This document shows, one piece after another, positions 51,667 to 54,756 of a stretch of 64,000 bases of DNA. Numbering within the stretch: position 1 is the first letter of the stretch; each line of letters begins with the position of its first letter. The notes below the pieces were generated by a model. The model was not told the DNA's origin. It saw nothing but the letters and a program-made list of their open reading frames with translations, and did not search any database. Source of the DNA: Acidicapsa dinghuensis (lineage in GTDB: Bacteria > Acidobacteriota > Terriglobia > Terriglobales > Acidobacteriaceae); the NCBI RefSeq assembly GCF_025685685.1, contig NZ_JAGSYH010000003.1, positions 372,001 to 436,000 of the forward strand. Direction: 5' to 3'. The position numbers and the translations under genes were made by a program.

Positions 51667-52434
51667 TTACTTTACCTGGTCCGCAGTCACTTCCACCTCC
51701 AGCCGATGCGTCGTCCCCGGCACATCGAGCGATCCAAGCACTACAGGCTTTCCCAGCGGCAGTACTGAGGTTGCGCTCAGCTCAGTCTGATGCACCACTG
51801 GATCTTCCCCACCAAAGCTTGAGTGCTCGTCACCGACACTCGACTCTGCGATCTTTGATGTCACCTTCACCCCGTCGACAAAACCTTCCGCTCTGGAATC
51901 GATGCCGAGGCCGATATCCATGTACTGGATCTGGTTTTCCTTGGCATTGCTGTCTTTGTTGAAGTTGCCGGTCCTGATCGGCACGCGCGTCCCCTGCTTC
52001 AGGTCGGCGCGATCACCGGAAGCAACAACCAGTTCAAAGCGCTGCGATACTCCATGCTTGCCGTCTTCAACCTGTGTAAGCGTGTAGGTCAAGCGGTAGG
52101 TGCGAACCGGCTTATCCATCTCTGCGACAATCTTCTGCGCCAGCGCAACATCGGCAGCAGAGGCGTTGATCGAGATGATCTGCGCCGATGGGTTCAGATA
52201 GGCACTGGCCCGCGGCATCGCATTGCGCAGGGCCTGCATGACGTCGTTAGCCTGGTCGTGCGAAACCATGTGCTGCAGCACAATCATCTGGTAAGTGTCC
52301 GCGTGGTAGCGCTCCTCGGATTGCGCGTGTGCTGTTGCCGCTGCGGTCAGACTCATCATCACTGCGATGATCGTTATTGTCAGGGCATTGCTCAGATACT
52401 TTTTTTCATTGCCCGCGTCCAAGCGTCGTGACAT
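51667..52434 (-). CDS. Exported secretin-domain-like protein
   Basis: The protein has 255 residues. A signal sequence (LTITIIAVMMSLTAAATAHAQ) is followed by a segment like a secretin N1/NolW domain: NDVMQALRNAMPRASAYLNPSAQIISINASAADVALAQKIVAEMDKP. The rest (YRLTYTLTQVEDGKHGVSQRFELVVASGDRADLKQGTRVPI, then LPLGKPVVLGSLDVPGTTHRLEVEV) resembles the beta-domain in the C-terminal half of secretin-like proteins but is far too short for a pore. I found no type II secretion or pilus genes nearby. It may be an outer-membrane or periplasmic scaffold; the function is not known. Confidence 0.7.
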   Translation of the reverse strand: MSRRLDAGNEKKYLSNALTITIIAVMMSLTAAATAHAQSEERYHADTYQMIVLQHMVSHDQANDVMQALRNAMPRASAYLNPSAQIISINASAADVALAQKIVAEMDKPVRTYRLTYTLTQVEDGKHGVSQRFELVVASGDRADLKQGTRVPIRTGNFNKDSNAKENQIQYMDIGLGIDSRAEGFVDGVKVTSKIAESSVGDEHSSFGGEDPVVHQTELSATSVLPLGKPVVLGSLDVPGTTHRLEVEVTADQVK

Positions 52435-52637
52435 TTCGCCTCCTCAAGTCTTCACCCCGGAGACAATGTGAGGTTATGCGTCCGGTGTGGTGTCGATACA
52501 CCCAGACAGACGCGGTGTAATCTTTTGCGCTCAAAAAATTCTTTCCGGCTATCCCTGCCTCCGATCTATGCACTCCTGTGGTAAGCTGCCAACTCATAAG
52601 GCCCCGTCGCAGTCCACACCTGTTCCAAGGAGCTCCA

Positions 52638-53810
52638 ATGCGAGTCCGGCCCATTGCCATCGTCCTGCTTGTTTGTGTTGCAGGCGTCGCCGCGGCGACA
52701 TTAAGCGCCGAGGGCAGAGGGTCAGGTGCATCCAAATCTGACACTCCTAAGGCTACGCAAGGCTGGGACGCCACTGCGGCTGCAAAATATCTCGATGACC
52801 GCGAGGTGTGGTGGCAGGCGTGGCCGCATGCACAGAAGGATCACGGCACGGTCTGCGTCAGCTGTCATACGCAGGTTCCCTACGCGCTGGCGCGGCCGGT
52901 GCTACGCAATGCGCTCGGCCAGCACACGCTGACCGATCCGGAATCGGCGATGATCGAAAGCGTCGTAAAGCGAGTAAATCTCGGCGATGAGGCAAAGACC
53001 TTCTACACGGATGCACAGCATGGACCTGGGAAGACAAAGGAAGCGCGCAACGCAGAAGCGGTCAACAATGCGCTGATTCTGGCCTCGTATGACGCCGCCG
53101 ACACCGCCGGCGGCGCGCACATGCAGCCCGTTACTTTCGCTGCTTTCTCAGCTATGTGGAAGTTGCAGGAGCGGACGGGCGACAAGGCTGGCGCGTGGGT
53201 GTGGCAGAACTTTCACTTCTCGCCATGGGAAGCGCCGGAGAGCGAATACTGGGGCGCGTGCATGGCTGCGGTTGCGACCGGCATCGCACCGGATCATTAT
53301 CGCGAAGATGCGCGCATCCAGCCGAATCTGAAGCTGCTGCGCGATTATCTACTGCGCGAAGAACCCCATCAGCCAATGATCAATCGCGTGGCGCTGCTAT
53401 GGGCTTCCTCAAAATTGCCGGGCTTGATGTCAAACAAAGATCGCGATGCGCTGGCCCGTGAACTCGCCGAAAAACAGCATGCCGACGGCGGCTGGAGCGT
53501 AGCAGAGCTTGGCACGAATGCTAAGGGTGAGACCGTATGGAAGCGGCATGATGACTCCTCATTCAACACCAATAGCGACGGGGTCGCAACTGGACTGATT
53601 GTGCTGGCTCTGGAAGAATCTGGCATGAAGAAGAACAGCGCTGAACTCAAGCGCGGGCTGGCCTGGCTCGAAACAAATCAAAACAAAGACGATGGCAAGT
53701 GGCCCGCCTGGTCGCTTAATCTTAAGCGAGACCCCAATTCCGATGTGGGTAAATTTATGAGCGACGCGGCAACGGGATTTTCAGTGTTGGCGCTCGAAAG
53801 AAGCCGTTAG
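52638..53810 (+). CDS. Exported protein with CXXCH heme motif and terpene-cyclase-like toroid
   Basis: The protein has 390 residues. A signal peptide (PIAIVLLVCVAGVAAATLSA) is followed by a c-type heme-binding motif CVSCH (residues 73-77) in a stretch WWQAWPHAQKDHGTVCVSCHTQVPYALARP. The rest is made of helical pairs typical of squalene-hopene cyclase/prenyltransferase alpha-alpha toroids (EKQHADGGWSVAELG, FNTNSDGVATGLIVLALEESGM, GLAWLETNQNKDDGKWPAWSLNL, ATGFSVLALE). The QxxDGGW-like QHADGGW is the strongest hint. The cyclase DXDD motif is absent, so cyclisation activity is doubtful; a redox or sensing role is possible. AAGGAG precedes the ATG at 52638. Confidence 0.8.
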   Translation: MRVRPIAIVLLVCVAGVAAATLSAEGRGSGASKSDTPKATQGWDATAAAKYLDDREVWWQAWPHAQKDHGTVCVSCHTQVPYALARPVLRNALGQHTLTDPESAMIESVVKRVNLGDEAKTFYTDAQHGPGKTKEARNAEAVNNALILASYDAADTAGGAHMQPVTFAAFSAMWKLQERTGDKAGAWVWQNFHFSPWEAPESEYWGACMAAVATGIAPDHYREDARIQPNLKLLRDYLLREEPHQPMINRVALLWASSKLPGLMSNKDRDALARELAEKQHADGGWSVAELGTNAKGETVWKRHDDSSFNTNSDGVATGLIVLALEESGMKKNSAELKRGLAWLETNQNKDDGKWPAWSLNLKRDPNSDVGKFMSDAATGFSVLALERSR

Positions 53811-53865: not shown

Positions 53866-54756
53866 ATGTACACTTCTTATCCAACTTCCATGAAGACAAT
53901 CTTCGTTCCGGCTGCGCTGTTCGTGCTGGCCACTACAACCATGTTTGCCCAGGACTCCGAACACTCCTGGTCGAAGACCTATCAGCTCTCTGGCAAACCG
54001 ACGCTTGTTTTCGAAACAGGCGATGCTGGTGTCGAGATTCACTCCTGCGGAGGCTGCCGCGAGATCCGCATCCATGTCGCAATCGAAGGCAAGAATCTGA
54101 GCGACTATCGCCTCGAAGAAAGCCAGACCGGCGATCAGGTCCAGTTCAAGCTTCACGAGCGTGAGCATCTTGGATTCCACATCGACCACCGTCAGTCCCA
54201 CACGCAGGTCAGCGTCGAGACGCCTGCCCAGCTCAATCTCCAGGCCAAAACCTCCGATGGCAGCGTGGCTATCGACGGGCTTAATGGCCAACTCGAACTC
54301 ATCACCGGCGACGGTAGCGTGACACTCGACCATCTCTCCGGCGATCTGCACCTCAAGTCAAGCGATGGCCCCGTCCGCATCACCGATTTCTCCGGCGCGC
54401 TTGATGCTCACACCAGCGATGGCAGCCTCAACGTCGATGGCGTCTTTCATGCCCTCACGGTACACTCCGGCGACGCCTCTGTGGATGTGAACCTGCGCCC
54501 CGGTACCAAGCTCACCTCCGCATCAACTATCCAAACTTCAGATGGCCAGGTCACGATTCGCGTTCCTGGAGATTTCGCCGCCGATCTGGAAGTGCATACG
54601 AGCGATGGCCATGTGGATTGCGCGTTGCCGCTGACGATGGATGGCTATCACAGCAATGGCGGCGATAGTCATCAGCTTCGCGGACGCATCAACGGCGGAG
54701 GAACGCTGCTGACCATTCACACCAGCGATGGCAATGTGAAGATTGAGTCGATCTAA
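53866..54756 (+). CDS. Exported DUF4097-like beta-solenoid protein
   Basis: The protein has 296 residues. A signal peptide (MKTIFVPAALFVLATTTMFAQ after a short N-terminal stretch) is followed by a right-handed beta-helix-like repeat. The turns are marked by S/T-S-D-G (TSDGSVAIDGL, TGDGSVTLDHL, SSDGPVRITDF, TSDGSLNVDGV, TSDGQVTIRV, TSDGHVDCAL, TSDGNVKIESI), each about 18-30 residues apart. This is the DUF4097 pattern found in envelope-stress and adhesin-like proteins. AAAGGA precedes the ATG at 53866. No anchor or transmembrane segment is seen beyond the signal, so it is likely periplasmic or surface-bound. Confidence 0.82.
   Translation: MYTSYPTSMKTIFVPAALFVLATTTMFAQDSEHSWSKTYQLSGKPTLVFETGDAGVEIHSCGGCREIRIHVAIEGKNLSDYRLEESQTGDQVQFKLHEREHLGFHIDHRQSHTQVSVETPAQLNLQAKTSDGSVAIDGLNGQLELITGDGSVTLDHLSGDLHLKSSDGPVRITDFSGALDAHTSDGSLNVDGVFHALTVHSGDASVDVNLRPGTKLTSASTIQTSDGQVTIRVPGDFAADLEVHTSDGHVDCALPLTMDGYHSNGGDSHQLRGRINGGGTLLTIHTSDGNVKIESI

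What the first reader, a model, noticed from the sequence alone, without database searches (positions are those of the whole stretch)
52638..53810. Heme-motif protein with a terpene-cyclase-like toroid
A single CXXCH close to the N-terminus is joined to repeats with the QHADGGW signature of squalene-hopene cyclase-like toroids, but no DXDD motif is present. A secreted, heme-bearing, non-cyclase toroid of this type has no clear described role that I know.
Basis: partly seen in the sequence, partly recalled or inferred. Interest (0 to 1): 0.6.

Follow-up and report, generated by a model that had tools for sequence, protein, structure and literature searches.

The report
Secreted heme-motif toroid protein family
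This gene makes a secreted protein whose body is folded like a terpene-making enzyme but lacks that enzyme's catalytic motif and instead carries a covalent-heme attachment site, and it belongs to a widespread, apparently undescribed bacterial protein family.

Summary
Window 52638-53810 (+) encodes a 390-aa protein with an apparent Sec signal, one CXXCH (residues 73-77) and a single squalene-hopene-cyclase-like alpha/alpha toroid without DXDD. It is not a lone oddity: CXXCH is at the same place in 88/88 full-length relatives from Acidobacteriota, Planctomycetota, Verrucomicrobiota and one Sphingobium plasmid, and DXDD is in 0/88. A sister group keeps CXXCH with the same toroid, some fused to ankyrins, a hydrolase, or a planctomycete cytochrome plus ankyrins. 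AlphaFold2 predicts the toroid (pLDDT 85; 80 for a sister member). Foldseek's best PDB matches are class II terpene cyclases. The genome encodes Ccm System I, so heme attachment is expected but not shown. No second His or Met is conserved family-wide; Met374 is invariant only in the window's clade. Best reading: an exported monoheme c-type protein in which the toroid replaces the cytochrome fold, probably an oxidoreductase whose heme faces the toroid cavity. Heme attachment is well supported; the catalytic role is inference. Neighbourhoods give little: some Verrucomicrobia place it beside PSCyt1/PSD1 or DUF1501 genes. I found no description of such a family in the literature or profile libraries searched.

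The parts
52627..52632 (+). AAGGAG ribosome-binding site, 5 nt before the ATG
   Evidence: sequence read directly
52638..53810 (+). CDS, 390 aa, secreted CXXCH-toroid protein
   Evidence: relatives align over residues 1-389
52638..52700 (+). apparent Sec signal peptide (residues 1 to about 21)
   Evidence: basic start, hydrophobic core, small residues; by eye, no predictor
52770..53804 (+). single alpha/alpha toroid (residues 45-389)
   Evidence: AlphaFold2 mean pLDDT 85.2, pTM 0.84; Foldseek best PDB match 8pak_A, squalene-hopene cyclase, E 7e-5
52854..52868 (+). CVSCH, predicted heme c attachment site (C73, C76) and proximal ligand (H77)
   Evidence: 88/88 full-length relatives
53475..53495 (+). 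QHADGGW, QW/DGGW-type toroid repeat motif (residues 280-286)
   Evidence: D283, G284, G285 in 88/88
53574..53591 (+). SDGVAT, conserved SD-x-x-x-T repeat element (residues 313-318)
   Evidence: S313 86/88, D314 86/88, T318 87/88
53757..53759 (+). Met374 codon, candidate distal heme ligand in the window's clade only
   Evidence: Met in 20/20 of the clade, not conserved in the other 68

Best explanation
The protein is exported through Sec; Ccm System I attaches one heme c covalently to Cys73 and Cys76, with His77 as proximal ligand. The heme is carried not by a cytochrome c fold but by a single class-II-terpene-cyclase-type alpha/alpha toroid that has no DXDD acid and so is not a protonation-driven cyclase. 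The most likely working mode is a periplasmic or extracellular monoheme oxidoreductase: the heme lies at or near the toroid mouth, a (probably hydrophobic) substrate or a small ligand binds in the toroid cavity, and the iron oxidises or reduces it or binds O2/peroxide, with electrons passed to or from periplasmic cytochromes. Shown: sequence, conservation, predicted fold, absence of DXDD, Ccm genes. Inferred: heme loading (about 0.85), heme facing the cavity and doing chemistry (about 0.4), the nature of the substrate (unknown).
For: CXXCH in 88/88 full-length relatives and in 25 of 26 loci found with a sister-group profile (about ten of those 26 are main-family members counted already). Toroid predicted for two divergent members, with class II terpene cyclases as best PDB matches. 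DXDD in 0/88, while the genome's own 686-aa SHC-like protein has DXDD and no CXXCH. CcmE and PF01578 proteins over their cut-offs; CcmA-, CcmB-, CcmC-, CcmF- and CcmH-like proteins recognised by eye in the same two regions. Ccm-I is reported to put heme on almost any secreted CXXCH (PMC6962350). Some sister proteins are fused to a PSCyt1 cytochrome (L108 by Pfam; L147 by its similar sequence). No His, Met or Lys other than H77 is conserved across the whole family. RoxA is a precedent for an exported c-type-related heme enzyme whose active heme has His plus bound O2 and acts on polyisoprene (PMC6797691).
Against: No heme has been measured. In the window's clade Met374 is invariant (20/20), which would fit a six-coordinate, purely electron-transferring heme. 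No conserved gene neighbour names a substrate.
Confidence: 0.6

Rival explanations
1. It is a plain monoheme electron carrier: covalent heme c with His77/Met374 ligation, the toroid serving only as scaffold and docking surface for partner dehydrogenases or PSCyt1-type cytochromes.
For: Met374 invariant in the window's clade, 20/20. Sister proteins fused to PSCyt1. Seven verrucomicrobial loci have a protein of the PSCyt1/DUF1549/DUF1553 cluster directly beside the gene on the same strand (one confirmed by Pfam).
Against: The Met is not conserved in the other 68 members. The toroid core is strongly conserved (W59, L148, P196, D283-G285, W343, S359 in 88/88), more than a mere docking surface would need. 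The gene usually stands alone.
Confidence: 0.25
2. It is a ligand-binding or sensing protein: the heme toroid binds a gas or small molecule and signals through partner domains (ankyrins in the sister group), without catalysis.
For: Ankyrin-fused sister proteins. No DXDD acid. Toroid folds also serve as ligand binders, e.g. cobalamin carriers (own knowledge, not checked).
Against: No consistent link to regulators or transporters in the neighbourhoods. The ankyrin parts sit on proteins that look exported.
Confidence: 0.1
3. CXXCH does not carry heme; it is a disulfide, metal or thiol-redox site on a secreted toroid.
For: No heme measurement. One sister protein has CASGH in place of CXXCH (L152).
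Against: The invariant His after the Cys pair, followed by Thr in 87/88, is the normal c-heme signature. A secreted CXXCH in a Ccm host would be expected to be loaded (PMC6962350).
Confidence: 0.1
4. It is a degenerate terpene cyclase pseudo-enzyme with a chance CXXCH.
For: Weak SHC profile matches and DXDD missing.
Against: CXXCH in 88/88 across several phyla, on a tree with single branches above 1 change per column; chance per protein about 0.0009; reading frames intact in nearly all relatives.
Confidence: 0.02

Closest known systems
Squalene-hopene cyclases and single-toroid class II terpene cyclases (PF13243/PF13249; PDB 8pak, 8paj, 2sqc, MstE 6sbe)
   Same: Alpha/alpha toroid, DGGW/QW-type repeats, SD-x-x-x-T elements; best Foldseek matches for two models.
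   Different: No DXDD (0/88), secreted, one toroid of about 340 residues, CXXCH with its preceding helix; profile scores below curated cut-offs.
Monoheme c-type cytochromes, including planctomycete cytochrome PSCyt1 (PF07635)
   Same: Exported, CXXCH(T), Ccm host; PSCyt1 is fused to sister-group members and encoded beside some verrucomicrobial members.
   Different: No Pfam cytochrome match and no cytochrome c fold in the model; no family-wide distal ligand.
Rubber oxygenases RoxA (diheme) and Lcp (b-type)
   Same: Secreted heme oxygenases acting on isoprenoids; in RoxA the active heme has His and bound O2 as ligands (PMC6797691).
   Different: RoxA has two hemes and is related to cytochrome c peroxidases; Lcp has a globin fold (PMC6797691); nothing shows that the toroid protein acts on isoprenoids.

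Membership tests
Squalene-hopene / class II terpene cyclases | DXDD protonating motif | tested here: not met
   0 of 88 full-length relatives
Squalene-hopene / class II terpene cyclases | Alpha/alpha toroid with QW/DGGW repeats | tested here: met
   AlphaFold2 and Foldseek; D283-G284-G285 in 88/88
Squalene-hopene / class II terpene cyclases | Score above the curated family cut-off | tested here: not met
   Window protein: PF13243 20 against 26.1 bits; TIGR03463 23 against 851 bits
Squalene-hopene cyclases | Two toroid domains, about 630 residues | tested here: not met
   390 aa, one toroid
c-type cytochromes (covalent heme c proteins) | CXXCH heme attachment motif, conserved | tested here: met
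   88/88
c-type cytochromes (covalent heme c proteins) | Export to the periplasm | tested here: inconclusive
   Signal peptide by eye in the window protein and most relatives; no predictor
c-type cytochromes (covalent heme c proteins) | Host encodes a cytochrome c maturation system | tested here: met
   PF01578 and CcmE over cut-off; CcmA-, CcmB-, CcmC-, CcmF- and CcmH-like proteins by eye
c-type cytochromes (covalent heme c proteins) | Covalent heme present (spectrum, mass) | not testable with these tools
   needs purified protein
Class I cytochrome c fold / PSCyt1 (PF07635) | Profile match or cytochrome c fold | tested here: not met
   No cytochrome family in Pfam or NCBIfam; model is a toroid
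Class I cytochrome c | Distal Met or His ligand | tested here: inconclusive
   None family-wide; Met374 in 20/20 of the window's clade
RoxA rubber oxygenases | Two hemes on a cytochrome-c-peroxidase-related scaffold | tested here: not met
   Single CXXCH, toroid

The most novel reading that the evidence does not exclude
A new class of c-type heme enzyme: an exported class II terpene-cyclase toroid that has lost acid catalysis and uses a covalently attached, substrate-facing heme for oxidative chemistry on lipids or other hydrophobic molecules, found in Acidobacteriota, Planctomycetota and Verrucomicrobiota.
Probability: 0.3. Interest if true: 0.85.

Novelty: new variant of a known kind. Interest (0 to 1): 0.6.

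Why it matters
If heme is confirmed, this is a covalent heme c carried by a terpene-cyclase toroid, a combination I did not find described, with deep branches, recurring fusions (ankyrins, PSCyt1, alpha/beta hydrolase) and members in cultured bacteria (Granulicella aggregans, Brevifollis gellanilyticus, Sphingobium sp. RAC03). It would show a toroid switched from acid chemistry to redox chemistry or ligand binding, and would give a testable protein beside the unexplained planctomycete cytochrome genes.

Tried and rejected
Chance CXXCH: rejected by 88/88 conservation. Active terpene cyclase: rejected, no DXDD. Operon with the downstream DUF4097 gene (55 bp gap): the close syntenic relatives L001, L002 and L008 have the NucS-like gene directly downstream instead, so the neighbour is not conserved. 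Function from neighbourhoods: no neighbour shared across acidobacterial or planctomycete loci. H193 as distal ligand: Glu in L091, so not general. Literature: CXXCH with squalene-hopene cyclase and toroid; CXXCH with squalene oxidase repeat; ankyrin with cytochrome c, squalene-hopene cyclase and Acidobacteria: no paper. A search for toroid cobalamin carriers gave nothing useful.

Full report
Observation. The gene is at 52638-53810 (+), 390 aa, with a good ribosome-binding site and an apparent Sec signal. It has one CXXCH at residues 73-77 and the QHADGGW repeat at 280-286. Shuffling the protein gives a CXXCH in 0.09% of cases.

Family. A scan of genome contigs gave 59 relatives. Whole-genome searches found strong matches (E below 1e-60) in 16 Acidobacteriota genomes besides the window's own, of 297 searched; matches at E up to 1e-25 in 19 of 199 Planctomycetota; and in 1 of 195 Verrucomicrobiota, the genome used as centre. 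One relative lies on a Sphingobium plasmid (42% identity). In 88 full-length members, W59, C73, C76, H77, L148, one Gly, P196, D283, G284, G285, W343 and S359 never vary; T78 is 87/88; DXDD is in none. The maximum-likelihood tree puts the window in a well-supported group of 20 (19 acidobacterial, 1 Sphingobium). Planctomycetota and Acidobacteriota are intermixed elsewhere, so some transfer or old duplication is likely, with long-branch warnings.

Sister group. Weaker hits turned out to be a second group with CXXCH at the same alignment place: stand-alone proteins (L149, L151, L154), toroid plus ankyrins (L109, L148, L160), PSCyt1 plus ankyrins plus toroid (L108, L147) and toroid plus an alpha/beta-hydrolase-like domain (L153). 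Pfam was run on L108 and L109; the other architectures were read by eye. A profile search of 149 Planctomycetota genomes matched 15, some of them through main-family members; 25 of the 26 loci carry CXXCH, the exception being the gene of L152/L173 with CASGH.

Fold. AlphaFold2 gives a helical toroid for the window protein (pLDDT 85.2, pTM 0.84) and for sister member L154 (80.5, 0.82). Foldseek against the PDB ranks squalene-hopene cyclases 8pak/8paj first in both cases (best E 7e-5 and 1.4e-7). Drimenyl diphosphate synthase, SHC and, for the sister model, MstE also rank high; thioester domains of alpha-2-macroglobulin/C5 and (alpha/alpha)6 glycosidases and lyases are among the weaker matches. 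TM-scores are about 0.4-0.6: same fold class, distant. Sequence profiles agree but are sub-threshold.

Heme. The genome encodes four PF01578 proteins and a CcmE over their cut-offs. One region (C16) reads as CcmE, a CcmA-like ATPase, CcmB and CcmC; another (C9) as CcmF with WGGYWGWD and a CcmH-like protein. These last assignments are by eye. Ccm-I is reported to load almost any secreted CXXCH (PMC6962350), so heme attachment is the expected outcome. Across the family no second His, Met or Lys is conserved; in the window's clade Met374 is invariant in 20/20. So the distal side is either open, or has ligands that differ by clade, or is closed by Met374 in this clade.

Context. In the window and its closest relatives the gene sits between dusB-like and NucS-like genes, a synteny of close kin. 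In seven verrucomicrobial loci a protein of the PSCyt1/PSCyt2/PSD1 cluster lies directly beside it on the same strand (gaps -17 to 42 bp), upstream in four and downstream in three; L022's was confirmed by Pfam. DUF1501 genes are adjacent in L023, L024 and L026; L024's was confirmed by Pfam. These cytochrome-domain genes are themselves of unknown function (PMC5615132). They are reported to be frequent in such genomes and I did not compute a background rate, so the association is suggestive only.

Mechanism. Supported: an exported toroid protein with a c-heme attachment site. Inferred: heme loading, and that the heme works on something bound in the toroid. I put about 0.4 on catalysis, 0.25 on a simple electron carrier, 0.1 on sensing or binding and 0.1 on no heme.

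Novelty. The parts are known (heme c, terpene-cyclase toroid); the combination is, as far as the libraries and open-access papers searched here show, undescribed. No Pfam or NCBIfam model covers the window protein at threshold. Of six other members tested against Pfam, L009 and L106 pass the PF13243 cut-off and L046 passes PF13249, in the toroid part only.

Noticed in passing
L108 6067-8430; L147 4299-6587: PSCyt1 cytochrome, ankyrin repeats and a second CXXCH with toroid in one protein, in two acidobacterial genomes.
   Followed up: partly
L153 685-2553: CXXCH-toroid fused to a C-terminal alpha/beta hydrolase-like domain (by eye) in a Gemmataceae genome.
   Followed up: no
L152 776-1771 (-): Sister-group member with CASGH instead of CXXCH, a natural variant that may have lost one heme thioether; paralogues in the same genome keep CXXCH.
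   Followed up: no
L115 14929-16032 (NZ_CP016453.1): Alphaproteobacterial member on Sphingobium sp. RAC03 plasmid pBSY17_1, next to an IS110 transposase and cas9/cas2 genes; likely gained by transfer.
   Followed up: partly
window 53866-54756 (+): DUF4097 (toastrack) protein 55 bp downstream of the gene; not there in syntenic relatives.
   Followed up: partly
window 51667-52434 (-): Short exported-looking protein with sub-threshold Secretin and Secretin_N matches only.
   Followed up: no
L134 1972-2742, L135 1453-2181: SGNH-hydrolase-like gene about 20-30 bp upstream of the toroid gene in two close planctomycete genomes (by eye).
   Followed up: no
L033, L045: Records titled Proteobacteria whose toroid genes sit inside the verrucomicrobial branch; probably mislabelled bins.
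   Followed up: no
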